A stretch of 64,000 nt of DNA, from NCBI RefSeq assembly GCF_003722355.1, contig NZ_QWDD01000003.1, positions 124,001 to 188,000 of the forward strand. The letters run 5' to 3'. A program made the position numbers and the translations under genes. The stretch is from Methylocystis hirsuta (GTDB taxonomy: Bacteria > Pseudomonadota > Alphaproteobacteria > Rhizobiales > Beijerinckiaceae). Below are positions 8,379-33,270 of the stretch, piece after piece (position 1 is the stretch's first letter; every line of letters starts with the position of its first letter). The notes below the pieces were generated by a model that was given only the letters and a program-made list of their open reading frames with translations, was not told where the DNA came from and searched no databases.

Positions 8379-8990
8379 GTGCCGGTAACAGACAAGCTGC
8401 TGAACGAAATAGAGGCCGCCGCCACAATCAAAAGCGGCGCCCGGCAAGCGCGCGTTTTTGTGGGCGTAAAGGTCGCACCTGAAATTGCGCATGAACTCGC
8501 TCGCTTTGCGCGGTGTTTGGAACGCTTTTCCGTTCGGCTCGTGCCGACCAATGACGTCCATCTTACGCTCGTGCCGCCATGGAACGAAGCTTCCATACCG
8601 ACGGCAGTCGTAAAACTTCGCGCGGTGACGGACAGATTCGGCGCATTTACGTTGATATTCCAACGTCTGGCTTACGGCCCGCAGCCTAGACGGCCCCGTT
8701 TGCTGTGGGCGGAGTGCGCGGCCACCGATGACGTCACATTATTACACGCCGCGCTTCTCCAAGGTTTCGGTCAACACGACGATCGACCGTTTCGGCCGCA
8801 TGTGACGCTTGCCCGCATTCGCGGCAATGGATCCGCCCTCGCGCGACGACAGCCGATTGATCAAGAATTATCGATTACGCAGCAGGTCGGATCAATCGAA
8901 CTCTTTCAATCGCCTCCTCCCGGTGGGGCCGGCTACAAGATTCTTGTCTCCTTGCGATTGGGTGACGGAGCGCAGACGGCGGACGCGTAA
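8379..8990 (+). CDS. thpR: RNA 2',3'-cyclic phosphodiesterase (2H family)
   Basis: A 203-residue 2H phosphoesterase with the two catalytic repeats HLTLVP and HVTLAR about 85 residues apart, and the family opening RVFVGVKVAPEIAHELA. ThpR/LigT enzymes open RNA 2',3'-cyclic phosphates to 2'-phosphates and can act in reverse on tRNA halves. A GTG start at 8379 is chosen because GGGAG lies nine bases upstream; an ATG at 8298 touches the IS junction and would be artificial. It follows the restored ACP stop by about 45 bases and fits with RtcB, archease and a polynucleotide kinase elsewhere in the window. Confidence 0.85.
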   Translation: MPVTDKLLNEIEAAATIKSGARQARVFVGVKVAPEIAHELARFARCLERFSVRLVPTNDVHLTLVPPWNEASIPTAVVKLRAVTDRFGAFTLIFQRLAYGPQPRRPRLLWAECAATDDVTLLHAALLQGFGQHDDRPFRPHVTLARIRGNGSALARRQPIDQELSITQQVGSIELFQSPPPGGAGYKILVSLRLGDGAQTADA

Positions 8991-9129
8991 TTTCCGCGGC
9001 GTGACGTAACGCCGACCTTGGGCGTGTGCGACAATAAGATAGATTCCGTGGGCGTTTTCCTCCAAAGTGGGATACGGACGTCAGTCGCCATGAGTCCGCA
9101 ATGTGGGGGCGTCGGGGAGAGGGCAGCGA

Positions 9130-9645
9130 ATGCAAAGCTACCCCATCAATATCGAGCCCCAGCAGATCGTTCAGTGGATCATGGCCGAGCGTCGGGCCGC
9201 GCCATCGAAATTCAGAATTATCGTCAGACGCGCCTTGGAAACGCGCGAACTTCCAGAAAGAAAGGAAGTGCGCCTCGGCGACGATGAGCGCGAGAATCTG
9301 AGCGAAACCGTTACCGTGGCGACGCGACAAATCGCGCCAGCTCATCCAAGCGACGGCTGGCTCCTGACTGTTGTCGTCGAGGACGAAATCGGCCCAAGTG
9401 CGTCCGAGGAGGCTGAAATGACCGAAGAAGAACAAGAGATCGACGTCGACGTCTTCTATAACGAGTTCATCCACCCTGGGCGGGGAAATGCAAGCGTCTT
9501 CGCGGAAGTAGCGAAGCCAGCGGGCAAGGCGCGCTTGGCTCGTCTCATCAATAGCATCGAGAAAGATCGTCACGCGTCAGATCGCAGGGGGGCGCCGCGC
9601 TCAATGAGCGCTTCTGAAACAACGTCCGACGGGTGCCCGCGCTAA
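9130..9645 (+). CDS. Conserved hypothetical protein with acidic middle
   Basis: A 171-residue protein starting MQSYPINIEPQQIVQWIM. The first 90 residues mix basic and acidic patches; residues about 95-115 are strongly acidic (EEAEMTEEEQEIDVD); the end has PAGKARLARLINSIE and an Arg-rich tail. No enzyme motif is visible. The ATG at 9130 is preferred because it follows GAGAGGGCAG; the upstream ATG at 9103 lacks one. Protein of this type sits between the RNA phosphoesterase and the stress genes and may be expressed with them. Function unknown. Confidence 0.6.
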   Translation: MQSYPINIEPQQIVQWIMAERRAAPSKFRIIVRRALETRELPERKEVRLGDDERENLSETVTVATRQIAPAHPSDGWLLTVVVEDEIGPSASEEAEMTEEEQEIDVDVFYNEFIHPGRGNASVFAEVAKPAGKARLARLINSIEKDRHASDRRGAPRSMSASETTSDGCPR

Positions 9646-9751
9646 CATTGGCGCTGACTCCTCTATAGGAACGCACACCATTTTCGGAATGTTGTCGCAC
9701 AGTGTGAGGCCCTTTGAAATCACTGGGCCAGATAATTATCAGGAGGTGCTA

Positions 9752-10018
9752 TTGACGCACAGTCCAACCGAAACTGAGAAGCTTCAAGCGCTAGCGACCT
9801 ACGCCGATGTGAAAGGCGTGCTCGGGGATATGGATGACGCCATGATAACGGCGATTTTGGCCTTGCGACCAACGATCGTGGACATCGAGGAGTCCTCCAT
9901 GTGGCTTTCGGGAGATACCGACGTTTTCGGACCTGGTCAGCCTTTGAAGGATGTTCCGGGACAGATTGTTGCGCTTCTTACCGCTGATGAAGAAGAGAAT
10001 ACGTCACGCACTCGTTAG
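9752..10018 (+). CDS. Small hypothetical protein (TTG start)
   Basis: An 88-residue acidic protein, MTHSPTETEKLQALATYAD onward, with GDMDDAMITAILALRPT suggesting a short helical bundle. A TTG at 9752 is chosen as start because a perfect AGGAGG lies five bases upstream (9741-9746); the ATG at 9689 has no ribosome site. It precedes the hsp20-lon pair by about 95 bases. I do not recognise a family. Confidence 0.55.
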   Translation: MTHSPTETEKLQALATYADVKGVLGDMDDAMITAILALRPTIVDIEESSMWLSGDTDVFGPGQPLKDVPGQIVALLTADEEENTSRTR

Positions 10019-10113
10019 CAGGCGCGATAATTTTAACGTGTGACTTCGGTAGGGCGATGTGCGCGGCGTCGTTTAGTCGACGTCAGGTCGCTGGAAGCCA
10101 ATAGGCAAGAGTC

Positions 10114-10525
10114 ATGGACCAAGACCTTATGCGAAACTGGATGTGGTTAGAGGCATGTGAAATGCTGACCCGAGCGGAGCGACTGCATCGCAAGTTCTTC
10201 AGGCCGATCCAGTCGGTTTCGCGGTTGCCCACATGGGAGCCGCCGGTAGATATTCTGGAGACGGAACGAGAGATTCTCATTGTTGCGGCGTTACCGGGCG
10301 TCAGCGAGGACAGCATCGAAGTGGCGACCGAATCGGGTGAGTTGGTGTTTGCAGGAATTCGCACGCTCCCCGCCGAACTACAGACTGCGGTCATCCATCG
10401 CATGGAGCTTCCGCAGGGACGTTTCGAGCGTCGCGTCCGGCTACCGGCCGGCGCGTATGGCGTCATCCGACGCTCGACCGTCGACGGTTGCCTGCTGATC
10501 ACCATCCAGAAAGAAGGCGCATTTC

Positions 10526-10533
<8 letters not shown>
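10114..10533 (+). CDS. Hsp20/alpha-crystallin small heat shock protein
   Basis: A 139-residue sHSP. The alpha-crystallin core starts near residue 47 at PPVDILETEREILIVAALPG and includes the beta-strand segment LVFAGIR, FERRVRLPAGA and a final strand GCLLITIQKEG in place of the more usual GVLxI. These chaperones hold unfolding proteins without ATP. The reading frame overlaps the GTG start of lon by eight bases, which implies coupled translation of a holdase with a protease. It is divergent from the second Hsp20 at 26390-26887. Confidence 0.88.
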
Positions 10534-12985
<2,452 letters not shown>

Positions 12986-13090
12986 TTGATAGCTCTTTCA
13001 TCAACGGCAAAGCTAGGTTCAATCTGAGGTATGTCGCCAAATGACGTAGGCGCGGCATATGGCGATAGGCCGATGTCAGAAACTAGAACT

Positions 13091-13930: not shown

Positions 13931-13934
13931 TTCC

Positions 13935-14356
13935 CACTCCCGTCGGCGTCTCGACACGCTCCAACGCAGCTCCGACGAGATCGGAAAGACCGCCGCGAGA
14001 CACGACGGCGGAAATGCGCTGAGCCTCGTGGGCCCCAGCGACCAGCGCCGCCGCGGCTCCAGTAATTGCGCCGAACAGGCCGATCGCCAGACTGCGAATG
14101 TCGCGGCGTGCGACGCCCAGGCGATAACCTCCTGCACACGCGCGCCAAGCAATTGGATGTCGAAGAGGTTACGGCAATCCTCGGCTTCCACGTCCGTAAG
14201 CAGATCGAATAGTAGAGCCGCGAAGCCATACTCCACGAGCCGCTTCGCTACAAATATGTTGCGCGGGCTTAAACGAGAGGAACCGCTGCCAAGGGCGAAG
14301 ATTATCACCCCGATTGGATCGGTGCAGGTGATCGCCGAAATTTTCGATCCCGCCAT
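13935..14356 (-). pseudogene. Dienelactone hydrolase-type alpha/beta hydrolase, frameshifted and truncated
   Basis: The frame opens with GVIIFALGSGSSRLSPRN, FVAKRLVEYGFAALLFDLL and LLGARVQEVIAWA, a hydrolase of the dienelactone-hydrolase class often joined to phosphoribosyltransferases in stress clusters. Near 14110 the frame shifts; the next frame continues RSLAIGLFGAITGAAAAL, the nucleophile region, and VVSRGGLSDLVGAAL, then stops at ERVETPT where an ISKra4 remnant begins. The nucleophile elbow reads GLFGAITG, with Ala where the catalytic residue (Ser/Cys) normally sits. The C-terminal Asp and His are missing. Confidence 0.7.
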
Positions 14357-14569
14357 CGCCGCCGCCTACGGTCCTGCGAAAGACGAACGCGTCGTCCCGA
14401 CCCATTGCGGCTCGCGCGGACTCGGCCGCCAGATCGAACCACCCCGGCGCTTATAAGGGTGTGCGCGCCGTCGTAAACTCGGCGAGGCCGGGGGGGGGGG
14501 CTTACGAAAAAAGTCGCGTTTCTGAAGCCGCTCTTTTGCATAAAGGGGTGAGGAGCGCTCACGCCGGGT

Positions 14570-18525: not shown

Positions 18526-18814
18526 TCACACCAAATCCTGCAAGCGCAGGCATCCATGAACATAGCGGACAATCTCCACGCGGTCGCCAAGGTTGCGGTA
18601 GAGGACGAGGTAGTCGCCAACGGGAAAGTGCCGCAGGTCGGCGGCAATGTCGGGCGGCGCCATGCCGCGGCGCGGGTTTTCGCTGAGCAGTTCCGAAAGG
18701 TCATGCAAGCACGCCATCAGCTTTTCAGCCGCCGCCGGACTATCCGCGGCGATCGCGGTTGCCGATATCCTCAAGATCGCGCGCGGCGCCGGGCGTGATG
18801 ACAAGCCGCGTCAT
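18526..18814 (-). pseudogene. parE: ParE/RelE-family toxin, frameshifted
   Basis: The first codons MTRLVITPGAARDLEDIGN match a ParE toxin and start with an ATGA overlap on the stop of parD. After about 19 codons the frame runs into a TAG; the correct protein continues one frame over with IAADSPAAAEKLMACLHDL, RHFPVGDYLVLYR and VEIVRYVHGCRL-type ending, stopping at 18526-18528. One inserted or lost base around GGCAACCGCG explains the break. The toxin, which would poison DNA gyrase, is therefore inactivated while its antitoxin remains open. Confidence 0.75.
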
Positions 18815-19086
18815 ATCTTGCTGACGGCGAGTCGCTGATATTTGCCGCGCAGCCGCTTGAACACAGGCGTGGCCTCGACCGCCGCGCCGCCTTCAATTCC
18901 TTCCTGCCACAGCCGCCGCAGTTCCTCCGCATCGAGCTCGCGCAGGGCGCGGCGCTGTTTCCAGTCGCGCAGCGCGTCGCGGACGACTTCGCTTGTCGAG
19001 GTGTATTCGCCGGTTTCGATGGCCTCCCTAATCAAGGCGAGAAATTCGGGGGAGAGGGCGATGCTGACCTTTTGGATGTTGGACAT
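18811..19086 (-). CDS. parD: ParD-family ribbon-helix-helix antitoxin
   Basis: A 91-residue antitoxin. The ribbon-helix-helix half (KVSIALSPEFLALIREAI, YTSTSEVVRDALRDW) binds its own promoter and the charged C-terminal half (LDAEELRRLWQEG) wraps the ParE toxin. The gene precedes parE with a four-base overlap, the usual order. Because parE is frameshifted, parD here probably survives as an orphan that could neutralise related toxins or only repress itself. An AT-rich TACTAT lies in the upstream region at about 19108-19113. Confidence 0.85.
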   Translation of the reverse strand: MSNIQKVSIALSPEFLALIREAIETGEYTSTSEVVRDALRDWKQRRALRELDAEELRRLWQEGIEGGAAVEATPVFKRLRGKYQRLAVSKI

Positions 19087-20335: not shown

Positions 20336-20773
20336 TCAATCGGCCTTGGGAGGCCATAGCGCACGCAGGTCGGATGGCAGGGCTTGGCGCACCTTGTCAA
20401 TCTCGCCGCCGCTGATTTTGTCTGAGAGCAGACGGAATGTCGCCGTGACCGCCTCCAAGGTGTCGCTCATCGGGTCGGTGACGAAGGCGTCGTCGATTCG
20501 GGCGAGGAAACTCGCTTTGTCGCGCTTCTTGACCGGGGTGGCGGCGGGCCGCCAGTCCTCATAGTAGACGCCACGCAGCAAGAGCGGCAACTGCGCGCCG
20601 AGATGCGCGGTATCGTTTACCTGCAACCAGTCGCGTACAGCTTGAAGCACCGTCCTCAGTAAGCGATAGGCGCGCGGCTTGTTGTCCCAACCAACCATTG
20701 CATCCAATTCATTGATCCAGCGATGGGTCAACTGAACCGTGCGATCAATTCCATCGAAACCTGCTGTGCTCAT
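20336..20773 (-). CDS. DUF2267 domain protein
   Basis: A 145-residue acidic-helical protein of the DUF2267 family: RTVQLTHRWINELDAMVGW, AYRLLRTVLQAVRDWL and LPLLLRGVYYEDWRP are typical. The family forms a helical repeat domain and is common beside CBS, Hsp20 and PHA-type genes in stress clusters. Start at 20773 (MSTAGFDGID) is chosen over upstream ATGs because homologues begin here. It is followed on the left by an empty region with a nested palindrome. The function is not known. Confidence 0.8.
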   Translation of the reverse strand: MSTAGFDGIDRTVQLTHRWINELDAMVGWDNKPRAYRLLRTVLQAVRDWLQVNDTAHLGAQLPLLLRGVYYEDWRPAATPVKKRDKASFLARIDDAFVTDPMSDTLEAVTATFRLLSDKISGGEIDKVRQALPSDLRALWPPKAD

Positions 20774-20915
20774 GTGACGCGCTCCCCAGTGTAAGGTTTC
20801 TATAGCAAGGCCTCCGGGACGCATCTCGCGGCAGCAAACGCCCCTCGCTCGCGCCGTATTGATCGACGGATCCGGCGCCGGTCGCGACAGCGAATTCACT
20901 CTGTAGCTTAACGGC

Positions 20916-21335
20916 TCAGGCGTGATGCGCCGAAACGGCCTTCATAACTTCGGCCGAGAGGTCGCGCGACCCTGCCTGAGAAATATCGCCAAGGGTGACA
21001 ATTCCAACCATGCGCTTGTTTTCATCGATCACTGGAAGGCGGCGAATCTGCTTGCTTTCCATGATGCGTGCCGCATCGTTGATCTCCTCGGCGTCGCGAC
21101 AATAGATGACGCCGCTGGTCATCACGTCGCGCGCCGTGAGCTTAGAGATGTCCTTACCCTGAGCAACGGCCCTAATTGTGATGTCGCGGTCGGTGACCAT
21201 ACCGACAAGACGGTCATTTTCACCGATTGGGATCGCGCCAATGTCATGTTCCAGCATCTTCTTCGCCACAGTGGCGATCGGCGTATCGGGCGAAAGCCAT
21301 TCGACGCCCCTGTGCATTACATCTCGAACCTTCAT
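20916..21335 (-). CDS. Two-CBS-domain protein
   Basis: A 139-residue stand-alone CBS pair, starting MKVRDVMHRGVEWLSPDTPI, with the motif GMVTDRDITIRAVA in the first domain and GIVTLGDISQAGSRDL in the second. Such Bateman modules bind adenosine nucleotides and act as energy or redox sensors. AGGAG lies eight bases before the start at 21335, so the longer open frame upstream is not used. It lies in the same direction as DUF2267, 142 bases ahead of it; a shared transcript is plausible. Confidence 0.9.
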   Translation of the reverse strand: MKVRDVMHRGVEWLSPDTPIATVAKKMLEHDIGAIPIGENDRLVGMVTDRDITIRAVAQGKDISKLTARDVMTSGVIYCRDAEEINDAARIMESKQIRRLPVIDENKRMVGIVTLGDISQAGSRDLSAEVMKAVSAHHA

Positions 21336-21967
21336 GGGAAAACTCCTGAGATTAGTCGTATAGGGGTTTATCGCAGCGCTTCCGCTTACTTCATTGTCCC
21401 CCGGCTCCATGCGCCTCCCCAGCCCGCGAGCACAACCTAAGAAATAGGGTTGCTCGTACAAATTAAACACTGCCGACTCAATTCATTCTGGGCGTTGATG
21501 CGGGTCAAGTCATATCCAACAGGTGTCGCTCCGGTCGAGCCAGGAAGCGATCACGCCGACGCCGTCTCGTTCGTGCGACGTTATGCGATTTCATGTTCGA
21601 ATGAGTTGGATTTATAGTGAAAAAATATGCAGCGGCAAACGCGAGTGCGACGAAGACGTCCTCCTCGTGGCGTCAATCTCTTTGTTTCGGCACCGCCTCA
21701 GTCGCGTTCACATTCGCAATGGAATCGGACATGCAGAACGACGCTAACCCCAAATACGTCGTGGCCTACGAAGTGGTCGCGACGAAATATTCTTGCTCGC
21801 ACCCTCAGTCGATGTCTCTCTTGGAACTTCGTACGAGTCGCTCTGCCTTCGCTACCACCTGCTTCGCCTCAAGCGATTGCGGAGCGGAAATCTGTTGCAG
21901 GAGCGCTTGCGTAAAATCCTGAAGCGGGGACGAATGTCGCCCCATCCAAGTTTACGTGATAACGCCG
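21336..21967. other. Intergenic stretch, no supported gene
   Basis: About 630 bases between the CBS gene and the esterase. Overlapping plus-strand frames occur near 21617-22044 but their composition shifts midway and they show no motif. The CBS promoter presumably lies in the left 150 bases. Confidence 0.4.
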
Positions 21968-22864
21968 TCATAGTTTACTTCGCAAGAAGGCGCCGATGCG
22001 CGCGATTGCTGCACGCCCTTCTGGCAAGATGCGCGCGAACATAGGCCAGACATGGAACATTCGCGGCCACACTTCGAGTTCGACATCCCGATCGGCTGCT
22101 CGCAGGCGCTCGGCCATTCGCATTGCATCATCGCGCAGCGCCTCATCGCTGCCGACAAAAATGAGAGTCGACGGCAGGCCCGTCGGATCGCCATAAAGTG
22201 GAGAGGCGTAGGGCGAGCGGGGATCCGCGCCGGCGAGATAAAGCTCGACGGCCTTCGGCATCAACTCAACCGGCACCATCGGATCGGAAGAGCCGTACTC
22301 AGTGAGTGATTGGCCGGTCAGCGCGAGATCGGTCCACGGCGAGAGCGCGACGGCGGCAGCCGGCAAGGGTAAGCCCTCATCGCGCAGACGCATCATGCTC
22401 GCGAGCGCGAGCCCGCCGCCGGACGAATCTCCGATAAACGCCACGTGGCGCGGCTCGGCGCACTCCGAGATAAGCCAACGATAGGCAGCGATCACATCCT
22501 CGATCGCCGCCGGAAACGGATGCTCGGGCGCAAGCCGGTAGTCGAGGCACAACACCCGCGCGCCGGCCGCGTCGGCGATGCGCCAGGTAAAATCGCGAAA
22601 CAGCGCCGGAAAGCCGAGGAGATAGGCGCCGCCGTGCAGGTGCAGGACGTATCGGTTTGGAAGCGAGCGGGGCGTGGCGATCCGCTCGGCTTTGACGCCG
22701 CCGGCGTCAACTACAATCAGCTCGGTTCCGCGCGGCGGGGGTGGCACGAGATGCGCGAAGCCGGCCACCTCTCGACGGACATCCTCGATTTGAATGTCCG
22801 CTCGAGACCGTGGCCGCATGAACCAAGGCAGGCAGAAGCGGATAAGCTCGGCACGCAAACTCAT
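21968..22864 (-). CDS. Hormone-sensitive-lipase family esterase
   Basis: A 298-residue alpha/beta hydrolase: oxyanion motif LHLHGGAYLLG, nucleophile elbow IGDSSGGGLALAS, then LSPWTDLALTG, the acid residue region SDEALRDDAMRMAERL and the histidine in RMFHVWPMF. These enzymes cleave short acyl esters. The start ATG at 22862-22864 overlaps the TGA of the preceding archaemetzincin gene (ATGA), so a longer upstream frame is rejected and the two genes are read as translationally coupled. Confidence 0.88.
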   Translation of the reverse strand: MSLRAELIRFCLPWFMRPRSRADIQIEDVRREVAGFAHLVPPPPRGTELIVVDAGGVKAERIATPRSLPNRYVLHLHGGAYLLGFPALFRDFTWRIADAAGARVLCLDYRLAPEHPFPAAIEDVIAAYRWLISECAEPRHVAFIGDSSGGGLALASMMRLRDEGLPLPAAAVALSPWTDLALTGQSLTEYGSSDPMVPVELMPKAVELYLAGADPRSPYASPLYGDPTGLPSTLIFVGSDEALRDDAMRMAERLRAADRDVELEVWPRMFHVWPMFARILPEGRAAIARIGAFLRSKL

Positions 22865-23397
22865 TTGCTCAAGCCACTGGAGCGGATGCGCGCTAAGCGG
22901 AGCGTCTCCTCGCAGCGGGGGCAGTAGGAGGCTCCTTTTCGGTCCGTCTCGCCCAGGGTATTGCTGAACCACATGACGCAGCAGGGATCGGCGCAATGGC
23001 CGAGCCCGAAGGTGTGGCCGAGCTCGTGCATCGCTTCCTTCAAAGCGCGGCCGCGAAAGCGCTCTTCGTCGGCGTCGAGATAGAGCCGGAACAGCGAGAT
23101 GACGCAGGCCTTTCCGTTCGGCCGGGCGACGCCAAAGACGAAGTTCAGATCGCCCGCGTAGAGGTCAACGTCCGTGACGGCCAGCACGCGCTCGGCCCTG
23201 GCCGAAAGCGCCAGGCCGAGCAGGCCATCGGCATGGAACTGGCCGCGCTTGGCGTCGAGCGCCCGCTGCGGCAGCGCGCGCCGCCTGGCCAGTTCGACAA
23301 CGAAACCCATGCCGCCTAAGTCCTGCGCCAAGTCGTCCAGCGCGCGGCGGTCAGGGTTGCCCACCGGCAGCAAAGTGATATGGGGCATGTCCGTCAT
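22861..23397 (-). CDS. Archaemetzincin-family zinc metalloprotease
   Basis: A 178-residue protein with the full archaemetzincin signature: MHELGHTFGLGHC gives the zinc histidines and glycine, followed by ADPCCVM and, some 16 residues on, CPRC, the second structural metal site. Family members are known mostly from archaea and vertebrates with scattered bacterial examples. No signal peptide is visible, so it should act in the cytosol. It overlaps the esterase gene by four bases. The start may be the ATG at 23397 or the one three codons later. Confidence 0.88.
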   Translation of the reverse strand: MTDMPHITLLPVGNPDRRALDDLAQDLGGMGFVVELARRRALPQRALDAKRGQFHADGLLGLALSARAERVLAVTDVDLYAGDLNFVFGVARPNGKACVISLFRLYLDADEERFRGRALKEAMHELGHTFGLGHCADPCCVMWFSNTLGETDRKGASYCPRCEETLRLARIRSSGLSK

Positions 23398-23447: not shown

Positions 23448-23708
23448 CTAGTAGGTCCTGTGGAACAGCCCCGCGATCTGCTCCGTCTTGCGCAAGCCGT
23501 TGTACAGGTCGTCAGCGTCCTGCGTCGGCAGCACGTTGGTCCCTAAACACGCCGTGCAGAGTGCCATTGCGAGCCATTTCCAGTCATTGCGCTTGAACAG
23601 GATATTTGCAGGAGCGACATTGCCCTCGACATTAACAGAAACTTCAAGGGTCGTTGCCGGCGGTTTTTCGGCCCTTGAGCATTCGAGCCGGCAATAGAGG
23701 GGGCACAT
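23448..23708 (-). CDS. Possible small hypothetical protein
   Basis: An 86-codon open frame, MCPLYCRLECSRAEK onward, ending DDLYNGLRKTEQIAGLFH. The C-terminal 60 residues look protein-like. However its start codon overlaps the divergent DJ-1 start (CATG), which is unlikely for two real genes, and I recognise no family. It would precede the archaemetzincin gene on the same strand. Confidence 0.3.
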   Translation of the reverse strand: MCPLYCRLECSRAEKPPATTLEVSVNVEGNVAPANILFKRNDWKWLAMALCTACLGTNVLPTQDADDLYNGLRKTEQIAGLFHRTY

Positions 23709-24216
23709 GCGAGCACTGATCGTCAGCTCCGACCGTTTCGAAGACAGCGAACTCTCCGAGCCGCTGCAACAATTGCAGGCAAAAGGGGTGGAAGTGGACA
23801 TTGCCGCGCCGCAGCAGGGACCGATCACCGGTAAGCACGGACACAGGGTGAGTGCCGGCCTGGCCCTCAGCGCTGTGCGGGCAGAGGATTACGAGCTGCT
23901 GCTGCTGCCTGGCGGCGAAGCGCCGGCGAGTCTGCGGAAGATCCCCGAGGCGGTGGCCATCGCCCGGCATTTCCTTCAGGCCGACAAGCCCGTGGCCGCG
24001 ATCTGCCACGGGCCGCAGCTCTTGATCGCCACCGGCCTCATGGCGGGACGCACCGCCACCTGCTATCGCGCGGTGAGACAGGAGTTGGAGGCCGCAGGCG
24101 CGAACTACTTGGACCGCGAGGCGGTCGTGGACGGCAATCTTGTCACCTCGCGCCAGCCGGCCGATATTCCCGCCTTCATGCGGGCGATCTTCAGAATCAC
24201 GAGACTGTCGGGCTGA
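23707..24216 (+). CDS. DJ-1/PfpI family protein
   Basis: A 169-residue protein of the DJ-1/PfpI superfamily: ALIVSSDRFEDSELSEPL at the N-terminus, LLLPGGEAPASLRK, the nucleophile elbow AAICHGPQLLIATG with the reactive cysteine near residue 103, and VVDGNLVTSRQPADIPAF near the end. Members are stress proteins with protease, glyoxalase or deglycase activity claimed. The order of motifs matches the general stress protein 18 subgroup. It faces away from the archaemetzincin-esterase pair. Confidence 0.9.
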   Translation: MRALIVSSDRFEDSELSEPLQQLQAKGVEVDIAAPQQGPITGKHGHRVSAGLALSAVRAEDYELLLLPGGEAPASLRKIPEAVAIARHFLQADKPVAAICHGPQLLIATGLMAGRTATCYRAVRQELEAAGANYLDREAVVDGNLVTSRQPADIPAFMRAIFRITRLSG

Positions 24217-24672
24217 GATTGGCAGTTTCCCACCCAAGAACCCGAGGCCATCGAGAAGCGAGTTGGCGGTTTTCGAATTCCACCCCATGTCGAAGTGGTG
24301 GACGGAAATGCACATACTGCATGGCTCGCATGAATGTCACGAGATCTGACTGGTTCGCTGCGATGAGGTCGTTCGATGCTTTCGGCCAATTAACTCGGGC
24401 TTTCGTAATGGCCCGCGTGGAGTCAAGTCCCTCGTATCAACTTCTCCAACCTTTGGTCTTCGTCGCCGGTCTCTTGCTTCCGTCCGTGGTCGGCGCGAGG
24501 CCGCCACACTATGCCATCAGAGGAAACAGCGAGCCTATCTAACTACGCGTAGTCCATCGCGAGATGGCCACGGCCCGATTTCCGGCTTCACCGATTCCAT
24601 CGTCCCGGCGACGGGACTTCGGACGAAGCGGGCCTTGTCAGGTCCGCTCCGGAATCCTTGTTTCCTTCTGGT
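24217..24672. other. Intergenic stretch, no supported gene
   Basis: About 450 bases between the DJ-1 gene and the IS110 element. A plus-strand frame at 24219-24542 has no motif. The right 100 bases probably belong to the IS110 element, but no end could be fixed. Confidence 0.4.
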
Positions 24673-25719
24673 TTAGGCGTTGACGTGTTGCGTCGCCTTT
24701 CCTTCTTTCGTCCAGCGGAAGCTCGTTCCGTCGACCCACATCCGATGAAGGATCACGCCGATCTTGCGCGCCAAGGCGACCTTGGCCCGTTTCGTCCCAC
24801 GCCGTTTCGCGACGTCCATTCCCCAGCGCTTCAGCGCCGAGAAACGCGTGACGCGCGACAGAAGGGCATTGGCCGCTTCGTAGAGCGCGGTGCGCACCAT
24901 CTCGTCGCCAACGCGCGTGACGCCGCCCGTCACGTCGGTTTCTCCCGACTGGTATTTCCTCGGCGTCAGGCCGAACAATGCGCCGACGGCTTTGGATTTC
25001 CGGATCCGCGTCGGATCGTCGATCGCTGTCTTGAACGTTATCGCCACCAGCGCGCCGACGCCCGGCGCGGTCATCAGGTGGCGGCACACAGCGTCGGCGC
25101 GCACGATCGCCAGCATGGTTTTATGCAATCTCGAATATTCCTTCTGCAGGGTAGCTCGCGCCGCGAGCATCGCCTCGGCGATCTTTTCCAACATCGCTTG
25201 GCCGACACACAGCTCGCGCGCCCGCGCATCGAAATTCTTGCGCGTCACCACGCCCATTTTGAGCCCGAACCCGCGTAGAATGCCGCGAATGCTGAATTCC
25301 ACGTCGAGCAATTTGCCGAGTAGCTGTTTACGAGCGACGAGCAGCGCTCGCACTTCCTGTGAACCAGTCGATTTGCAATGAACCGACCGAAACCAGCCCA
25401 TCCGGATCAGCTGGGCGATGCCGCGCGCATCACGCCGATCCGTCTTCACGGTCATCGCCGACAGCGCCGCCTTCACGTGCCGGGTCTCCAGAAGAACGGT
25501 TTCAAAACCGGCCGCGGTCAATCCGGCGTGTAGCCATTGTGACAGCGGTCCGGCTTCGAGCCCGATCCGCCCCACCGGAATGCGAAGCCCCCTGAAAAAA
25601 CCGATGAGCGCAGCGGGATCGCTCGGGACTTTCGTCTCTCTCACGATCTTCCCCTTCGCATCCACAATGCAAACGCTCGAGAGTTCCAAAGACACGTCGA
25701 TCCCGGCATAATGTTCCAT
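24673..25719 (-). mobile_element. IS110-family transposase, intact
   Basis: A 348-residue DEDD transposase. The RuvC-like N-terminus reads YAGIDVSLELSSVCIVD and KTDRRDARGIAQLIRMG, and the C-terminal serine-containing domain reads MTAPGVGALVAITFKTAI and ARKIGVILHRMWVDG. IS110 elements move through circular intermediates and usually leave no inverted repeats; none was found. It lies next to the 3' end of an AI-2E transporter remnant. It differs from the second IS110-type element at 39521-40888. Confidence 0.9.
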
Positions 25720-25839
25720 GGTTGTCCTCCGTCCGGCGATGCTTGGGGCCTGGCGTCAAACCAGAACCCCGTTTCACCATCATACGGGGGACAACCACCC
25801 CTCCGCCCAGCTCAGGGTGCGGGCCATTACGGCATCTAA

Positions 25840-26272
25840 TGCGATCGGTCAGCCGTCGAGCCGTCGCGTATCCATGCGCTTGCGAGATCCCATGCCACAG
25901 CGAGGACAACTGGGCCCCGAAGAGGCCGGCAACGCCATGCGCATGCCCGCCGCCAATGACGCCAATGAAAATCGCCATCGTGGGGTTGGTGAGGCTGCGC
26001 GATAGAAGGCACGGCTTGAGGAAATTGTCCATAAAGTTGACGATCAGCCTACAAATGGTGTGGCTAACGCAGCTCCAGTCACCCAAATTTGCGCAGCCCC
26101 ATATTATAACGGGGGCGACGATGACTAATGGTCCAAGTTGAATAATTCCCAAAACAAGAACCGTAAGCGCCAACAGGCTTGCGCCGGGAACGGCCGCCCA
26201 TGTCATGCCGACTCCTGCAACGATCGACTGAAGTAGCGAGAGGCCGATTACGCCGCGAAACTGCGGCGGCAA
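25840..26272 (-). pseudogene. AI-2E family transporter (PerM-like) C-terminal remnant
   Basis: The minus strand shows GVIGLSLLQSIVAGVGM, VPGASLLALTVLVLGIIQLG, VIIWGCANLG, then NFMDNFLKPCLLSRSL and GVIGGGHAHGVAGLFGAQL, the conserved final third of AI-2E/PerM proteins. The first two thirds are missing, and local wording after GDWSC is unlike the family, which suggests compensating shifts. The 3' end runs into the IS110 region. Not functional. Confidence 0.7.
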
Positions 26273-26339
26273 TCCCCGGCGGGGGGTATGGGCGGCATGG
26301 AATACTGACGCCCAAAAAACTGCGAGAGATTAGTAATGA

Positions 26340-26366
26340 GGCCCTGGGGGATCTCCCCCCAGGGCC
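26340..26366. terminator. Strong GC hairpin between AI-2E remnant and hsp20
   Basis: GGCCCTGGGGG, loop ATCT, then CCCCCCAGGGCC form an 11-pair stem. On the plus strand it is followed by TTTC and on the minus strand it lies 23 bases beyond the hsp20 stop. It is most simply an intrinsic terminator for hsp20, though the T-run is weak. Confidence 0.65.
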
Positions 26367-26389
26367 TTTCACGTGCAGCACGCCTAAGG

Positions 26390-26887
26390 CTATTTCGTTT
26401 TGATTTCGATTGTTTTTTGCGCTTTTTGAGCCTCCGGCGTCTTTGGAAGGCGGACCGTTAGCACGCCCTTGTCGAACGAGGCCTCGATTTTGTCCGCATC
26501 GACACCCTCGGGGAGGCGGAAGGCGCGCTTGAAGGAGCCATAACGCCGCTCAGAGAAGTAGTAGCCTTCCTTCTTTTCTTCCTTCTCTTCCTTTTTTTCG
26601 CCGCCGATGGTCAGCGTCCCGTTCGACAGCTTTACCTCGACGCTTTTGTCGTCCATGCCCGGCAGTTCCGCCGTGATTTCATACTCTTTTTCCTTTTCGA
26701 CGAAATCCACCGCGGGCGTCGCTGGGAACCCGCTGAGAAGGCGATCGAAGGGTTCGAAAGCGCTGACGCTTGCTGGAGCAGGAAACTCCTCAAAGAGCCG
26801 ATTGATCTGGCGCCGTAACGTTTCGAAGGGGTGCCACTCTAAGCCGGTCTCCTTTTTTACCGGCAGTTTGGTTTCTTTTTCCGCCAT
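26390..26887 (-). CDS. Hsp20/alpha-crystallin small heat shock protein
   Basis: A 165-residue class A sHSP. After a charged N-terminus (MAEKETKLPVKKETG) come the LRRQINRLFEEF helix, PAVDFVEKEKEYEITAELPG opening the alpha-crystallin domain, a lysine/glutamate-rich loop (GGEKKEEKEEKKEG) and the final GVLTVRLPKTPEAQ. The start at 26887 follows GGAAGGAAACGGAC. It resembles the IbpA-type partner often found beside dnaK; here the divergent neighbour is a dnaK fragment. It is a holdase that would feed DnaK and ClpB or Lon. Confidence 0.92.
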   Translation of the reverse strand: MAEKETKLPVKKETGLEWHPFETLRRQINRLFEEFPAPASVSAFEPFDRLLSGFPATPAVDFVEKEKEYEITAELPGMDDKSVEVKLSNGTLTIGGEKKEEKEEKKEGYYFSERRYGSFKRAFRLPEGVDADKIEASFDKGVLTVRLPKTPEAQKAQKTIEIKTK

Positions 26888-27274
26888 GTCCGTTTCCTTC
26901 CGTAGACGACAAAGTTGCCCACCACGATTGCTGTCGCGAAAAGTGAGACCGAGCGGGAACGCCGCAGTCCCCACGGCATAAACTCGCCGGTATCTGCGAC
27001 AGATTCAAGTCGGGGCGCGCAGGTCAAATCGCTGCGATCGACATGCCCAATCAGCGTGAGAAGGATTGAAGGCCGCTGCGTTCTCTCACGAACCGCCGGC
27101 TTGCGTCGGCGACTTGGAGCTAAAGAAGGCACTGCGCCGCCGCAGCGGCAGCGTCCCGGTCGGCGACCGATAGCATCTCGGTCAGAACGGACCAGCGGTT
27201 GCGAGGAGGAATGATAGCGGTCAAAATCAACCCCAGACGGCTCAGCATTTGTAGTCCCGTCAAGGAACGCAAAT
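26888..27274. promoter_or_regulatory. Divergent control region between hsp20 and the dnaK fragment
   Basis: Nearly 390 bases between two outward-facing chaperone genes. On the hsp20 strand a CTTGAA (plus-strand TTCAAG, 27004-27009) fits a sigma-32 minus-35 box, but no clear CCCCATNT-like minus-10 follows at the right spacing, so this is weak. AAGGA lies before the dnaK start. No CIRCE repeat is present. Confidence 0.35.
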
Positions 27275-27646
27275 ATGCCGATTATCGGTATCGATCTTGA
27301 CAGCTCGAATTCGGCCGCTGCGGCGCTGCGGGGCGGCCGCCCAACGGTCATCCCCAGCTCCGAGGGCTTTACCTTGGGCGGGAAGGCTTTTCCGAGCTTT
27401 GTTGCATTGACTGCGGGCGGACAGATGCTAGTCGGCGAGCCCGCGCGCCGGCAGGCGACAGCGAACCCGGAAGGGACGACCACCGCCTTCAAGCGATTGA
27501 TGGGCCGCCGCGAGAAGGTGCGTCTGCGCGATCGTGAGTTTTCGCCCGAAGAGCTATCGGGCTTCCTGCTGCAGAAGATCAAGCGCGATGCTGAGGCCTT
27601 TCTGGGCGAATCGATCAAGCAAGCAGTCGTGACGGTCCCAGCTTAT
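27275..27646 (+). pseudogene. DnaK/Hsp70 N-terminal fragment
   Basis: The first 124 codons encode the start of an Hsp70 ATPase domain: [15 protein letters not shown] (phosphate-1 region), [32 protein letters not shown] and [12 protein letters not shown]. The normal continuation DDNQRxATKDAG is missing and the frame runs into DNA antisense to the next genes. The phosphate loop reads LDSSNS instead of the usual DLGTTNS, so this was already a divergent Hsp70. The remaining 80 percent of the gene is absent. Confidence 0.85.
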
Positions 27647-27727
27647 TTTGCATGGCTGTTTCCGCTCGGAACTCCACTTCGGCAAAGAAGTCAGGGGCGA
27701 CATTGGCTTTCCGGCGCCAGAGTTCTC

Positions 27728-28735
27728 TTACCATGTCCAATTGATCTGCCCGAGTTCGCTTCCGTCCGGCGTTACGTAGAGGTCGCCGAACTGGACGATC
27801 CTCGCCTGGTCGCTTCCCACCGCGGTCGTCAGCGCGAGGACTCGACTCGAGAAATCGATGCGATCGATTATTCCAAGCCCGCGGCAGCGTCCCGTTTTGT
27901 CGGCGACCCCACACAAAAGGCTGTGTTCGAAGCCCACGGGCAACACTTTGCTGCCTGAGGGCGCCCGGTCCGGCGCGCCGACGATTAGAAGACCTTCGGC
28001 CGTCTGCTCTGCATGCACGGCGCCCTCCCGAGCGGCCGGCTTGCCCGTGAACAGCAGCGTGCGCTGGAAAGCGAGCGCTTCCAACGGCAGCTCGAGGCGA
28101 TTTGCGTTGGCGAAGTGCCGTGCGTAGGCCCGCGTGCGCACCTCGATCCTTTCGCCATTGTCTTTCGGACGCGCCGCGCGGGAAGGCTTAAGCCGGATAA
28201 AGTGGGCGTGGCGATTGGCCACACGAATGGGCGCAAGCTCGTTTCGCCGCTCCAGGGCGACAATAACGTCGGGCCGCACGGCTTCGATCTTGTAGTTCTT
28301 GAGCACTCGCCCCGTGTCGTGAATCAGCCCTGTGGTGTCGATGATGATGAACGGGGCGCTGGCCTGGTGCGCGAGGTTCGCCGTCCCGATCACGAGGGGC
28401 AGGAGGCGGCCCATCGGATTCGTGCTTCCGACAAAGAAATGGGCGAGGGGCGACGCCGCCGAAAAATCGACCGAGCCGCTGAAACGAGCGAGCGAAATTG
28501 TTGCCGGCGGCCCGAGATTGGTCTGCCCGATATCGGCGTCGACAACGTCCACCTCGGCTCGCTGCCCCAGGGTTTCGGCCAGATAACGACAAAAACTGCT
28601 CTTGCCGACGCCAGCGCCGCCAACGAGAAGGACGGTGCATCGAACGCGTCGGAGTATCTCCGCAGCGGCGGCTTCCCATTCGGGCGGAATGTCGAGTCCG
28701 CCGCCTGATTTCACGTTCACTGGCAGCCTCCTCAC
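27728..28735 (-). CDS. Grc3/Clp1-like polynucleotide 5'-hydroxyl kinase
   Basis: A 335-residue P-loop protein of the Clp1/Grc3 class: Walker [18 protein letters not shown] near residue 40, [19 protein letters not shown] (the kinase Walker B and metal-binding DxDxGQ), the [19 protein letters not shown] segment with [15 protein letters not shown], and a C-terminal beta domain with [15 protein letters not shown]. Archaeal and eukaryotic relatives phosphorylate RNA or DNA 5'-OH ends. The start is GTG at 28733-28735 and overlaps the TGA of the THEP1 gene, so the two are coupled. Bacterial examples are uncommon. The frame is intact. Confidence 0.85.
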
Positions 28736-29295
28736 GCAGCGGGTGGTTGAGATTTCCTGGCGAGCCAGGTGATGATGCTAGCAGGCAGATCATTGCGATT
28801 GGCGGTTGTGACCTCCCATAGCTCGCATTCCGGCATGCGCTTGACCTCGGCGATGAAGCCGCCTCCGCGTGCGCCGACGGTGGCGACGATCGGCGCTTCG
28901 TACGAGAGCAGGGCGCGCATGGCGGTGATGAAGCGATCGGAAAGGCATTCCATCTTGCCGATCTCGTCCACCAGATAGGCGCGCGCGCCGGAGTCGGGGC
29001 CGAGCAACCGCGCCGCATCATCGAGCGCCCTTACGTCTACGCCGTATTTGCCTACGGCGTGGGTTTTCGGAAAACCCACATGAGCGACGACGCGCGCCCT
29101 CTGGTCGAAGTCCACAAGCCGGAAGCCGCGTCGTTCTCCATCCTCGCGAATCTCTTCGGTATAGAAGCCCCGGAGCCCTTTCGATCCGAGACGTTCGGCG
29201 ACGCGCCGGATCACCGTTGTCTTGCCGACGCCGGGCGCTCCGGTGAGCAACAGGACGCGACCGTCTGTATCGAAGCTTTCGGACATGCCTGTCAT
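28732..29295 (-). CDS. THEP1-type nucleoside-triphosphatase
   Basis: A 187-residue NTPase of the THEP1 family: Walker A LLTGAPGVGKTTVIRRVAER, GLRGFYTEEIREDGERRGF, and Walker B YLVDEIGKMECLSDRF, with FIAEVKRMPECELWEVT near the end. The archetype from Aquifex aeolicus hydrolyses NTPs; the human relative (cancer-related NTPase) is similar; the cellular role is open. It is the first gene of an overlapping pair (GTGA) with the Grc3/Clp1-like kinase, which suggests a joint role in nucleotide or RNA-end chemistry. The start could be 29295 or the ATG three codons later. Confidence 0.9.
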   Translation of the reverse strand: MTGMSESFDTDGRVLLLTGAPGVGKTTVIRRVAERLGSKGLRGFYTEEIREDGERRGFRLVDFDQRARVVAHVGFPKTHAVGKYGVDVRALDDAARLLGPDSGARAYLVDEIGKMECLSDRFITAMRALLSYEAPIVATVGARGGGFIAEVKRMPECELWEVTTANRNDLPASIITWLARKSQPPAA

Positions 29296-30259: not shown

Positions 30260-30373
30260 TTCGGGCGGTGAGACGATCGGAGGATTGTTCAGAATTCGCG
30301 CGAGCGGGCGTGGGTTTACCTGCGATTCACGTGCGAGTTAAGCCTCCAAAGACGCGCATTTACGAATGGAATC

Positions 30374-30905: not shown

Positions 30906-31382
30906 TCGCATTGGATCGCCAGAGTTGAGCGGGACAAGAGACGCCGCGAGTTGGGCGAATATTGACCCGAACGCAGAGCTCAAACAGCCCGACACTGCAT
31001 TTCCTCCAATCAAAGCGCCCTGTTCACCATCGGTTTGTTCAGTGGTGCTGCCCGCCGGTCCGCGCAGCCGGCCAGGGGCCCAGAGATCCCCCTCACTCGA
31101 CACTCACCTCACGTGGCATAGGTATGTTAGCCTAGTCTGCTACCCGCTGTCGTCGTTGGCAAAAATTTCGTTTTGCCTGAACCCCGGCAACGACGCTTAA
31201 GAGCGACATTCGTAGCGTAGCCTTTGTGCTTGTGGCCAAGGTCAATCGCCAACGCGATCCGATGATGCTATTTTTTGTATCTGTTCGTCGCGATGGTGCG
31301 CGACGCCGTGAAGGGCTTCATTTCCTTCGATCGGGTGTTTTGATCGGGTCGAAGCGAAAGCTGATGTGAAAGGGTTAAGCCC
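30906..31382. other. Intergenic stretch upstream of archease-rtcB
   Basis: About 480 bases with no supported gene. It must contain the promoter of the archease-rtcB operon. No sigma-54 type minus-24/minus-12 sequence and no rtcR gene were seen, unlike the Escherichia coli rtcBA system. Confidence 0.45.
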
Positions 31383-31826
31383 ATGAGCTGCTCCGCCTCA
31401 ACCGCCAAGAGCGGCGGGAAATGGGAACATTTCGCGCATGATGCGGACGTTGGGGTGCGCGGGTGCGGAGCGACTGCCGCGGAGGCTTTCGAGCAGGCTG
31501 CCTGCGCGCTGACCGCCGTTGTCACTCATGCCGAGGTCGAGCCGCTGGTTTCAGTGGAGGTCGAATGCGAAGCGCCTGATCTCGAGCTTCTGCTGGTCGA
31601 ATGGCTCAACGCGATCATCTATGAAATGGCCGTTCGGAAGATGTTGTTCGGACGCTTTGCTGTTCGGATCGATGGTACGCGTCTCGCAGGGACGCTGTGG
31701 GGTGAACCGGTCGTGATCGAACGGCACAGCCCGGCCTGCGAGCCCAAAGGCGCCACTTACACCGAGCTGAAGGTCGTGAAGGATCCCGATGGCGCCTGGT
31801 CGGCAGGATGCATTGTGGACGTGTGA
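31383..31826 (+). CDS. Archease, RtcB activator
   Basis: A 147-residue archease: WEHFAHDADVGVRGCGATAAE carries the conserved H-x-DxG metal-binding start, LLLVEWLNAIIYEM is the conserved middle helix, and the end reads ELKVVKDPDGAWSAGCIVDV. Archease speeds RtcB guanylylation and allows multiple turnover. The gene is 13 bases upstream of rtcB, the standard order, and both read in the same direction. Confidence 0.93.
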   Translation: MSCSASTAKSGGKWEHFAHDADVGVRGCGATAAEAFEQAACALTAVVTHAEVEPLVSVEVECEAPDLELLLVEWLNAIIYEMAVRKMLFGRFAVRIDGTRLAGTLWGEPVVIERHSPACEPKGATYTELKVVKDPDGAWSAGCIVDV

Positions 31827-31839
31827 CGGAGATCGAGCG

Positions 31840-33270
31840 ATGGACCCAGGTCGTTTCACTCAGGTCGATGCCACGACTTGGCGTGTCGATCCGTGGGGCG
31901 CGATGCGCGTGCCAGCGATCATCTATGCCGACGAGAACCTGATCCGAGACATGGATAATAAGGTTTATGACCAGGCCGTGAACGTCGCTACGCTGCCCGG
32001 GATCGTTCAAGCCTGCTACGCCATGCCGGATGCTCACTGGGGCTATGGATTTCCGATTGGTGGAGTGGCGGCCTTCGATCCGGATCGCGGCGGGGTTGTT
32101 TCTGCAGGCGGTGTCGGGTTCGACATTTCGTGCGGCGTGCGCACCATGCTTACCGGCCTAGCGGTCGCCGACGTCCTTTCAGTTCAGAAATCGCTCGCCG
32201 ACTCGCTATATCACCAGATTCCAGCCGGCCTCGGCAGTCGAGGAGCGATCACTCTCGATGCCCTCGAGATGGACGCAATGCTTATCGGGGGCGCCCGCTG
32301 GGCCGTCGAACGCGGCTGGGGTGAAGCGCGCGATCTCGAACGGATCGAAGAAGAAGGATGCATGGCTGGCGCGCAACCCGACTGGGTTTCCGAGCGAGCC
32401 AAAGAACGCCAGCGCCGAGAAATGGGGACGCTCGGCTCGGGTAATCACTATTTCGAGATTCAGGCGGTCGCCGCGATCTACGATCTCGCGGTCGCTGATG
32501 TCTTCGGGCTCGTGCAGGACGAGGTGGTGGTGACAATTCATTGCGGATCGCGTGGCCTTGGCCATCAAATCGGGACCGAGTACCTGAGGGAAATGCTGGT
32601 CGCCGCGAAAGAAGCCGGCATAGAGCTTCCCGATCGCGAGCTGGCCTGCGCGCCGATCAACTCGGAAGTCGGTCGGCGTTATCTCGGCGCGATGCGCGCA
32701 GCCATCAACTGCGCGTTGGCCAATCGCGAAATTCTCGGCCATTTCGCTCGGCGCATTTTTGCGCATTTCTTCCCGAACTGCGATTTGCGCCTTCTCTTCG
32801 ATGTCTCCCACAATACCTGCAAGGTCGAACCCCACATCGTCGACGGGCGGCGACGTGAACTATTCGTTCATCGCAAGGGCGCAACTCGGGCCTTTGGGCC
32901 CGGCCATGAGAGCCTGCCTGCGGCGCTTCGAATGGTGGGTCAACCAGTGCTCATCGGCGGCAGCATGGGAACAGGCTCATACGTTCTCGTCGGCGAGGCG
33001 ACGAGCGAGGCGAAGGCCTTCTCCTCGGCCTGTCACGGAGCCGGACGAGCGCTCTCGCGTCATGCGGCGCTCAAGCAGTGGAGCGGTCGCCAGACGGTCG
33101 ATGACTTAGAGAAAGAAGGCATCCTGATCAGATCGCCTTCGATGCGCGGCGTCGCCGAAGAAGCGCCTGGAGCGTACAAGGACATCGGCGCAGTGGTTGC
33201 TGCGGCCGAGCACGCGGGCCTTGCCCGGCGCGTGGCGCGTCTCAGGCCGCTGATTTGCCTCAAGGGATAG
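31840..33270 (+). CDS. rtcB: RNA-splicing ligase RtcB
   Basis: A 476-residue RtcB with the manganese and GMP-binding motifs: GGVGFDISCGVRTM (cysteine ligand), LGSGNHYFEI, IHCGSRGLGHQIG, VSHNTCKVEPH and the guanylylated histidine in SSACHGAGRALSR. RtcB joins RNA 2',3'-cyclic phosphate or 3'-phosphate ends to 5'-OH ends, repairing cleaved tRNA and rRNA. The start at 31840 has GGAG eight bases upstream; an earlier in-frame ATG lies inside archease and is rejected. The gene is intact. Confidence 0.95.
   Translation: MDPGRFTQVDATTWRVDPWGAMRVPAIIYADENLIRDMDNKVYDQAVNVATLPGIVQACYAMPDAHWGYGFPIGGVAAFDPDRGGVVSAGGVGFDISCGVRTMLTGLAVADVLSVQKSLADSLYHQIPAGLGSRGAITLDALEMDAMLIGGARWAVERGWGEARDLERIEEEGCMAGAQPDWVSERAKERQRREMGTLGSGNHYFEIQAVAAIYDLAVADVFGLVQDEVVVTIHCGSRGLGHQIGTEYLREMLVAAKEAGIELPDRELACAPINSEVGRRYLGAMRAAINCALANREILGHFARRIFAHFFPNCDLRLLFDVSHNTCKVEPHIVDGRRRELFVHRKGATRAFGPGHESLPAALRMVGQPVLIGGSMGTGSYVLVGEATSEAKAFSSACHGAGRALSRHAALKQWSGRQTVDDLEKEGILIRSPSMRGVAEEAPGAYKDIGAVVAAAEHAGLARRVARLRPLICLKG

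What the first reader, a model, noticed from the sequence alone, without database searches (positions are those of the whole stretch)
8379..33270. Dispersed RNA healing-and-sealing toolkit
Within 25 kb lie ThpR (opens or reverses 2',3'-cyclic ends), a Grc3/Clp1-like 5'-OH kinase with a THEP1 NTPase, archease, and RtcB (seals 3'-P/cyclic-P to 5'-OH). An RNase Z-like gene closes the window. All five core genes are intact while most neighbours are broken. Together they could process every kind of end left by RNases or toxins such as those in the same window. That they act as one system is an inference.
Basis: partly seen in the sequence, partly recalled or inferred. Interest (0 to 1): 0.75.

Follow-up and report, generated by a model that had tools for sequence, protein, structure and literature searches.

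The report
Plasmid stress island with RNA-end enzymes
A bacterial plasmid carries a cluster of stress-survival genes that includes enzymes for rejoining, trimming and phosphorylating broken RNA, but they look like partly opposed activities travelling together rather than one repair line.

Summary
The genes are real and read open at the stated places: ThpR, a Clp1/Grc3-like 5'-OH kinase behind a THEP1 NTPase, archease, RtcB, and an RNase Z-subfamily gene at the window end. They lie on a 260-kb contig of an alphaproteobacterium that has two further intact archease-rtcB operons and one broken pair. "Most neighbours broken" and "RNase toxins in the window" did not hold.

The co-occurrence test splits the set. 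So ThpR, archease-rtcB and probably RNase Z belong to one mobile stress island. The kinase does not clearly belong: in G1119 it lies 1.24 Mb away near DJ-1, and no THEP1 reached the cut-off.

By published chemistry, a 5' kinase and a cyclic phosphodiesterase make ends that RtcB cannot join, and the PF09414 ligase family was not found in this genome. "Healing then sealing" is therefore unlikely. I prefer a stress island in which RtcB reseals while ThpR, and perhaps the kinase, commit ends to other fates. A seal-or-clear switch is possible but unproved.

The parts
8379..8990 (+). ThpR, RNA 2',3'-cyclic phosphodiesterase (2H family)
   Evidence: TIGR02258 70.8 bits, cut-off 65.7; LigT_PEase and 2_5_RNA_ligase2; both H-x-T motifs kept in the 4 island homologues aligned
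9103..9645 (+). uncharacterised protein that follows ThpR in the same order on contig C4
   Evidence: C4 order ThpR - this gene - 9689 gene at L089 8391-9957; homologue in G1119 island
9689..10018 (+). uncharacterised 109-aa protein, third gene of the ThpR trio
   Evidence: 67% identical on C4 in the same order, 56% in the G1119 island next to ThpR; no Pfam
14105..14435 (.). remnants of an abhydrolase and of RtcB (38 residues), a dead copy of another archease-rtcB neighbourhood
   Evidence: tblastn; RtcB profile match C3:138322-138435, under the cut-off
20336..20899 (-). DUF2267 island gene
   Evidence: Pfam; recurs on C4 and in G1119 island
20916..21470 (-). two-CBS-domain island gene
   Evidence: Pfam; recurs on C4 (93%) and in G1119 island (52%)
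23707..24216 (+). DJ-1/PfpI, near the Clp1-like gene here and in G1119
   Evidence: 88% identical, 2.7 kb from the Clp1-like gene in G1119
27728..28735 (-). Clp1/Grc3-like polynucleotide 5'-hydroxyl kinase
   Evidence: CLP1_P 110 bits; [18 protein letters not shown]
28732..29295 (-). THEP1-like NTPase, upstream of and overlapping the kinase gene
   Evidence: NTPase_1 125.9 bits; PDB 1ye8 and 2i3b
31383..31826 (+). archease
   Evidence: PF01951 126.6 bits; 4n2p Protein archease
31840..33270 (+). RtcB RNA ligase (ORF opens at 31789; start inferred from homologues)
   Evidence: PF01139 548 bits; nearly full-length match to 1uc2 RtcB; motifs
63021..64000 (+). RNase Z-subfamily metallo-hydrolase (runs past the window)
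   Evidence: NF002558 396.4 bits, cut-off 315; stop codon at C3:188029; 45% identical homologue 1.2 kb downstream of rtcB in G1119

Best explanation
The window holds part of a laterally moving, plasmid-borne stress-survival island of Hyphomicrobiales-type bacteria. Among genes for DNA repair (PolX), protein quality control (Lon, Hsp20) and stress sensing (CBS, DUF2267), it carries an archease-rtcB operon, ThpR and an RNase Z-like enzyme. RtcB, activated by archease, would rejoin tRNA or rRNA broken under stress (3'-P or 2',3'-cyclic-P to 5'-OH). ThpR would open cyclic ends that are not resealed. The THEP1-Clp1 operon is a separately acquired neighbour; its kinase would put a phosphate on 5'-OH fragments, which withdraws them from RtcB and may mark them for 5'-P-dependent decay. 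Shown: genes, open frames, selection (all but THEP1 and RNase Z), and co-location in a second genome for all but THEP1-Clp1. Inferred: all enzyme activities, substrates, regulation, mobility, and the fate of kinase products.
For: G1119 holds RNase Z-like, rtcB, archease and ThpR within L067 6389-18475, with DUF2267 and the two ThpR-trio homologues, and PolX, CBS, DUF2267 and S30AE-CSD in the adjoining 20 kb. The window RtcB is sister to G1119's (support 100/99), apart from the host's chromosomal copy. The host has intact archease-rtcB on C1, C3 and C4, plus a broken pair on C4 among Hsp20, ABC, DUF2267 and CBS homologues. The ThpR trio keeps its order on C4. dN/dS (NG86) is about 0.06 for RtcB, 0.10 archease, 0.17 kinase, 0.22-0.26 ThpR; dS is 1.2 or more, so these are rough.
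Against: Linkage is not universal. In G618, ThpR and archease are 424 kb apart. The G537, G541 and G620 ThpR matches are weak (28-35% identity), lie on other contigs, and have no island genes but generic ABC-ATPase matches in the stretches fetched. The island view rests on one outside genome plus the host's own replicons. No shared regulatory site was found: a FixK-like pattern (recalled) is at chance level. Only 10 of 31 window genes recur in the 60 kb taken from the G1119 island, one of them weakly (25% identity).
Confidence: 0.6

Rival explanations
1. One integrated healing-and-sealing system: ThpR and the kinase prepare ends that RtcB-archease then seals, with RNase Z trimming.
For: Six RNA-end genes on one contig; four recur clustered in G1119. 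The five Clp1-bearing genomes other than the host that I tested also have archease, 5 of 5, against 5 of 297 in the order; 3 of the 4 distant ones also have a strong THEP1 (145-188 bits).
Against: The kinase's product (5'-P) and the cyclic phosphodiesterase's product are stated to be unsuitable for RtcB (PMC6456296, passages). No PF09414 ligase in the host. Kinase 1.24 Mb from rtcB in G1119 and no THEP1 over the cut-off there. The four distant Clp1 genomes (two Atribacteria, Scalindua, Methanoxibalbensis) belong to groups in which archease and THEP1 may be common; base rates were not measured.
Confidence: 0.1
2. Neutral reading: a large stress island gathers many damage-response genes, and the RNA enzymes are an unremarkable sample with no joint role beyond the known archease-RtcB pair.
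For: The island also carries PolX, Lon or LonB, Hsp20, CBS, DUF2267, RNR and AlaDH. Six of the 25 other window genes recur in the G1119 island, against 4 of 6 RNA genes (counted), a weak contrast. The RNase Z-like gene was not found near archease in the other loci compared.
Against: Co-occurrence of ThpR with archease: 5 of 5 against 6 of 292 (p 2.5e-8; 3 of 3 without the window's genus, p 2e-5).
Confidence: 0.35
3. THEP1-Clp1 has nothing to do with RNA damage: the pair serves nucleotide or DNA-end metabolism.
For: The best PDB stretches cover only about 120-140 of 331 profile positions. Ts-Clp1 also phosphorylated ssDNA at high enzyme amounts (PMC6777427, section 14 read). The gene seen near the kinase in both genomes is DJ-1.
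Against: The GK of Walker A, DADIGQ and DTTG are invariant in the 19 sequences aligned; the bacterial Clp1 tested in PMC6777427 prefers ssRNA.
Confidence: 0.2

Closest known systems
Archease-RtcB operon of bacteria and archaea (Desai et al. 2014, PMC3973293, passages)
   Same: archease directly upstream of rtcB, same strand; both full length
   Different: here on a plasmid-size contig in a stress island; the host has three intact copies, two of them behind an S30AE-cold-shock gene
RtcR-regulated rtcBA RNA repair operon (PMC7790460, search listing only)
   Same: RtcB as stress RNA ligase
   Different: archease beside rtcB; RtcR and RtcA were not searched for in the genome
Bacterial Clp1 family kinases such as Ts-Clp1 (Saito et al. 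2019, PMC6777427)
   Same: CLP1_P domain with kinase motifs; very rare in bacteria (14 of 1,543 species in that paper)
   Different: 335 aa against about 27 kDa for Ts-Clp1; follows a THEP1 gene
Kinase-mediated decay in yeast (PMC6456296, passages)
   Same: a 5'-OH kinase competes with ligation and exposes fragments to 5'-P-dependent decay
   Different: there the kinase is Trl1 and the nuclease Xrn1; the bacterial counterpart is inferred only
RNase Z (ELAC1 / NF002558 subfamily)
   Same: above the NF002558 subfamily cut-off; best PDB match ELAC1
   Different: far below the TIGR02651 equivalog cut-off (113.5 against 292.95)

Membership tests
RtcB RNA ligase | PF01139 domain full length | tested here: met
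   548.2 bits, profile 1-426 of 426
RtcB RNA ligase | active-site motifs (GGxGxDIxCG, GSGNH, HxGSRG, HNxxK, HGAGR; motif list recalled) | tested here: met
   all present; alignment with 1uc2 from residue 9 to the end
RtcB RNA ligase | 3'-P/5'-OH ligation | not testable with these tools
   needs enzyme assay
Archease | PF01951 domain over cut-off | tested here: met
   126.6 bits against 25; the NCBIfam model NF001617 ('hypothetical protein') gives 102.9 against 126, not reached
ThpR / LigT 2H phosphoesterase | TIGR02258 over cut-off and two HxT/S motifs (motifs recalled) | tested here: met
   70.8 against 65.7; HLT and HVT. The G1119 homologue scores 64.2, just under the cut-off
Clp1/Grc3 kinase family | CLP1_P domain with Walker A, DxDxGQ and Walker B/clasp region | tested here: met
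   110 bits against 26.6, profile 1-187 of 188; motifs. Lid motif not settled; no NCBIfam model matched
Clp1/Grc3 kinase family | 5'-OH RNA kinase activity | not testable with these tools
   needs enzyme assay
THEP1 NTPase | PF03266 over cut-off | tested here: met
   125.9 against 23.9; NF010248 equivalog 136 against 156, not reached
RNase Z (equivalog TIGR02651) | score over curated cut-off | tested here: not met
   113.5 against 292.95; subfamily NF002558 met, 396.4 against 315
Integrated healing-and-sealing system | kinase and RtcB genes co-located across genomes | tested here: not met
   1.24 Mb apart in G1119, the only Clp1 genome found in 391 of its family; about 10 kb apart in one Atribacteria contig with other, unidentified ORFs between; in the other three distant genomes the kinase contig and the archease contig differ in length, so no linkage is seen
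Integrated healing-and-sealing system | a ligase that accepts kinase-made ends (5'-P/3'-OH) | tested here: inconclusive
   PF09414 absent in G000, one sub-threshold match in G1119; other RNA-ligase families not searched

The most novel reading that the evidence does not exclude
A bacterial seal-or-clear switch for stress-broken RNA: archease-RtcB reseals 5'-OH/cyclic-P ends, while the THEP1-Clp1 kinase (with ThpR) makes the same ends unsealable and exposes the fragments to 5'-P-dependent RNases. It would be a bacterial counterpart of kinase-mediated RNA decay, carried on a mobile stress island.
Probability: 0.13. Interest if true: 0.75.

Novelty: new variant of a known kind. Interest (0 to 1): 0.42.

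Why it matters
Bacterial Clp1-type kinases are very rare (PMC6777427), and I know of no established cellular role for them. A genome that carries such a kinase with THEP1 near RtcB-archease, ThpR and an RNase Z-like enzyme gives a direct place to test whether RNA 5'-kinases in bacteria oppose RtcB repair. Linking RtcB-archease to a stress island, and in several loci to an S30AE-cold-shock gene, also points to RNA or ribosome damage under stress as the likely substrate.

Tried and rejected
A scan of genome contigs for kinase relatives returned only four distant loci; viral contigs and plasmids gave none. A FixK-like site was no more frequent than in shuffles. Rfam and tRNA scans of the window were empty. 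Contig-length matching of archease with kinase homologues gave 0 matches at or above 4 kb (0.125 expected); archease with THEP1 gave 1 (0.05 expected), too few to use. Reading the kinase as part of the archease-rtcB island was rejected because of G1119. A paper on RNA repair systems in biological conflicts that I recalled (Burroughs and Aravind) is not held; I saw nothing of it, so it may already discuss such neighbourhoods. Searches of the held library for RtcB and archease with operon and Hsp20, with ThpR, with alphaproteobacteria, for RtcB with genomic island and Rhizobiales, and for at least three of six island terms found no paper; one paper holds RtcB, archease, Clp1 and Grc3 together and none of the two listed for THEP1 mentions Grc3. 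This covers open-licence papers only.

Rows set aside: the co-occurrence count uses all 297 genomes as given, taking the 297 and to be the same draw (same request, same handles where listed), and a second count leaves out the window's genus. In one search, 8 of 385 genomes were over the family's Pfam cut-off; besides the window's own, 7 were so only marginally (25.7 bits or less for the best single stretch, 26.7-29.7 with neighbours). I took these for other P-loop proteins, did not check them, and did not count them as Clp1. In one search the window's own protein in each list and P0201 (no contig length) were left out; the window's own archease row and P0318 and P0334 (no contig length) were left out.
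Full report
Setting. The window is bases 124001-188000 of a 260,028-base contig (C3) of a genome with a 3.78-Mb contig (C1, taken as the chromosome) and a further 158-kb contig (C4). That C3 and C4 are plasmids is inferred from size. Against the plasmid collection, 24.9 kb of the window found 5 records; the best three are Methylocystis, about 83% over 1.7 kb, under the ABC exporter gene only. Names attached to kinase, THEP1 and archease relatives are Pseudolabrys, Bradyrhizobium sediminis, Hyphomicrobiaceae and Xanthobacteraceae. An alphaproteobacterium of the order Hyphomicrobiales is inferred; no name is given for the genome.

The observation. All named genes are present and open. ThpR starts at 8379 and passes TIGR02258, with both HxT motifs. 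The kinase passes CLP1_P along nearly the whole profile and has [14 protein letters not shown] and DTTG. THEP1 passes NTPase_1, and its stop overlaps the kinase start. Archease and RtcB pass their Pfam models, and RtcB aligns over nearly its whole length with the Pyrococcus enzyme. The gene at the window end is RNase Z-like: over the NF002558 subfamily cut-off, but well under the RNase Z equivalog cut-off. Two side claims fail: many neighbours look whole, and the toxin families seen among the 69 window ORFs scanned (ParE, RES) are not RNases by recalled knowledge.

Copies in the same genome. Archease-rtcB occurs intact on C1, C3 (window) and C4, and broken on C4; a 38-residue RtcB piece also lies in the window at 14322-14435. 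The C1 and C4 rtcB genes show no difference in DNA, within a 6-kb stretch of 90% overall identity. In the archease tree G1119 is also the window's nearest row, but that fork is not supported. The kinase occurs once in this genome, and THEP1 once over the cut-off, with one further match under it.

Rarity. With the alignment of 19 kinase sequences, 1 of 397 genomes of the order (the window's own) and 1 of 391 of the family of G361 (G1119) match at E 1e-20 or better. A Pfam search of 385 genomes of the class gave one strong match, the window's own; 8 of 385 were over the Pfam cut-off, the other 7 marginally and unchecked. The protein database nevertheless lists 435 relatives among 8000 candidates scored; nearly all of the 120 shown carry no species name. 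Archease is found in 5 of 297 genomes of the order, yet 5658 database relatives exist and the best 120 are at least 73% identical to the window's.

Co-occurrence. (1) ThpR: with the window's ThpR as query, 11 of 297 genomes match at E 1e-6 or better, including all 5 archease-bearing ones; 6 of 292 others match (Fisher p 2.5e-8; without the window's genus 3 of 3, p 2e-5). Against this, only the window's genus exceeds 35% identity in that set; the other three archease genomes match at 28-35% and on other contigs, and genomes are not independent. (2) Linkage: in G1119 the RNase Z-like gene, rtcB, archease and ThpR lie within 12.1 kb (L067 6389-18475), with DUF2267, alanine dehydrogenase, a LonB-like protease and homologues of two other window genes between or beside them; PolX, S30AE-CSD, CBS and DUF2267 lie in the adjoining 20 kb. 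On C4 the ThpR trio keeps its order, and ThpR is about 14 kb from the broken archease-rtcB. In G618 ThpR and archease are 424 kb apart. (3) Kinase: the five Clp1-bearing genomes other than the host that I tested all hold archease, 5 of 5, but in G1119 the kinase is 1.24 Mb from rtcB, near DJ-1, as DJ-1 is near it in the window. THEP1 has only a sub-threshold match in G1119, and is strong (145-188 bits) in 3 of the 4 distant Clp1 genomes, weak in the fourth. In one Atribacteria contig kinase and archease are about 10 kb apart with other ORFs between. (4) THEP1 and kinase: equal contig lengths for 8 pairs of homologues against 1.7 expected (maximum 6 in 112 shifts), 6 of them in the same source against 0.5 (maximum 3); one of the 6 is too short to carry both. 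This suggests a conserved THEP1-kinase pair but is indirect.

A further association. Directly upstream of archease-rtcB lies an S30AE (hibernation-factor type) plus cold-shock-domain gene in 5 of the 8 intact loci examined (C1, C4, G618 and two loci of G537, one cut by the contig end). No match was seen in the window, G541, or directly at the G1119 locus, though G1119 has one elsewhere in its island. The two domains were shown by Pfam only for C1 and C4; the rest are tblastn matches to the C1 protein. It fits a ribosome or RNA-damage role better than the kinase does.

Selection. dN/dS estimates between the window copies and their relatives are about 0.06 (RtcB), 0.10 (archease), 0.17 (kinase) and 0.22-0.26 (ThpR); synonymous change is near saturation, so only 'well below 1' is safe. 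For the RNase Z-like gene dS could not be estimated. THEP1 had no second locus to compare.

Mechanism. RtcB joins 3'-P or 2',3'-cyclic-P to 5'-OH, and archease activates it (PMC3973293, passages; PMC10630183, passages). A yeast study discusses that a 5' kinase such as Clp1 may at once inhibit RtcB joining and promote 5'-P-dependent decay, and that opening the cyclic phosphate to 2'-P makes an end unfit for RtcB (PMC6456296, passages). That ThpR leaves a 2'-P is recalled, from no call. A bacterial Clp1 (Thermus scotoductus) phosphorylates RNA (PMC6777427: abstract, passages, sections 14 and 15). So ThpR and kinase would compete with RtcB rather than feed it, unless a 5'-P/3'-OH ligase is present; PF09414 was absent from this genome and gave one sub-threshold match in G1119. 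Other ligase families were not searched.

Noticed in passing
L015 11420-14058, L017 13623-16118, L068 9392-11880, L070 5929-3487, L071 1-2361: An S30AE plus cold-shock-domain gene (Pfam for the first two, tblastn for the rest) sits directly upstream of archease-rtcB in 5 of 8 intact loci, hinting at a ribosome-linked role for this RtcB.
   Followed up: partly
window 33416-35959 -: An open 847-aa frame that I recognise as translation initiation factor IF2 on the plasmid-size contig, with no match in the other island stretches compared; whether the chromosome has its own copy was not tested.
   Followed up: no
G000:C1:1097760 and C4:126820: rtcB on the chromosome and on C4 show no DNA difference while the surrounding 6 kb is 90% identical overall, as after recent gene conversion or transfer.
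   Followed up: partly
L072 (G620:C48): Archease of the window type (69%) without a recognisable rtcB beside it on the 9.5-kb contig.
   Followed up: no
window 22861-23397 -: An M54 (archaemetzincin-like) peptidase that matches only the second half of the profile (97-192 of 194).
   Followed up: no
L055 15877-19993 and window 23707-28735: DJ-1 (88% identical) and the Clp1-like kinase lie near each other in two families; G1119 also has a PCMT protein-repair gene there.
   Followed up: partly
window 55586-56952 +: RES toxin with Xre-type antitoxin, besides ParDE at 18526-19086.
   Followed up: no
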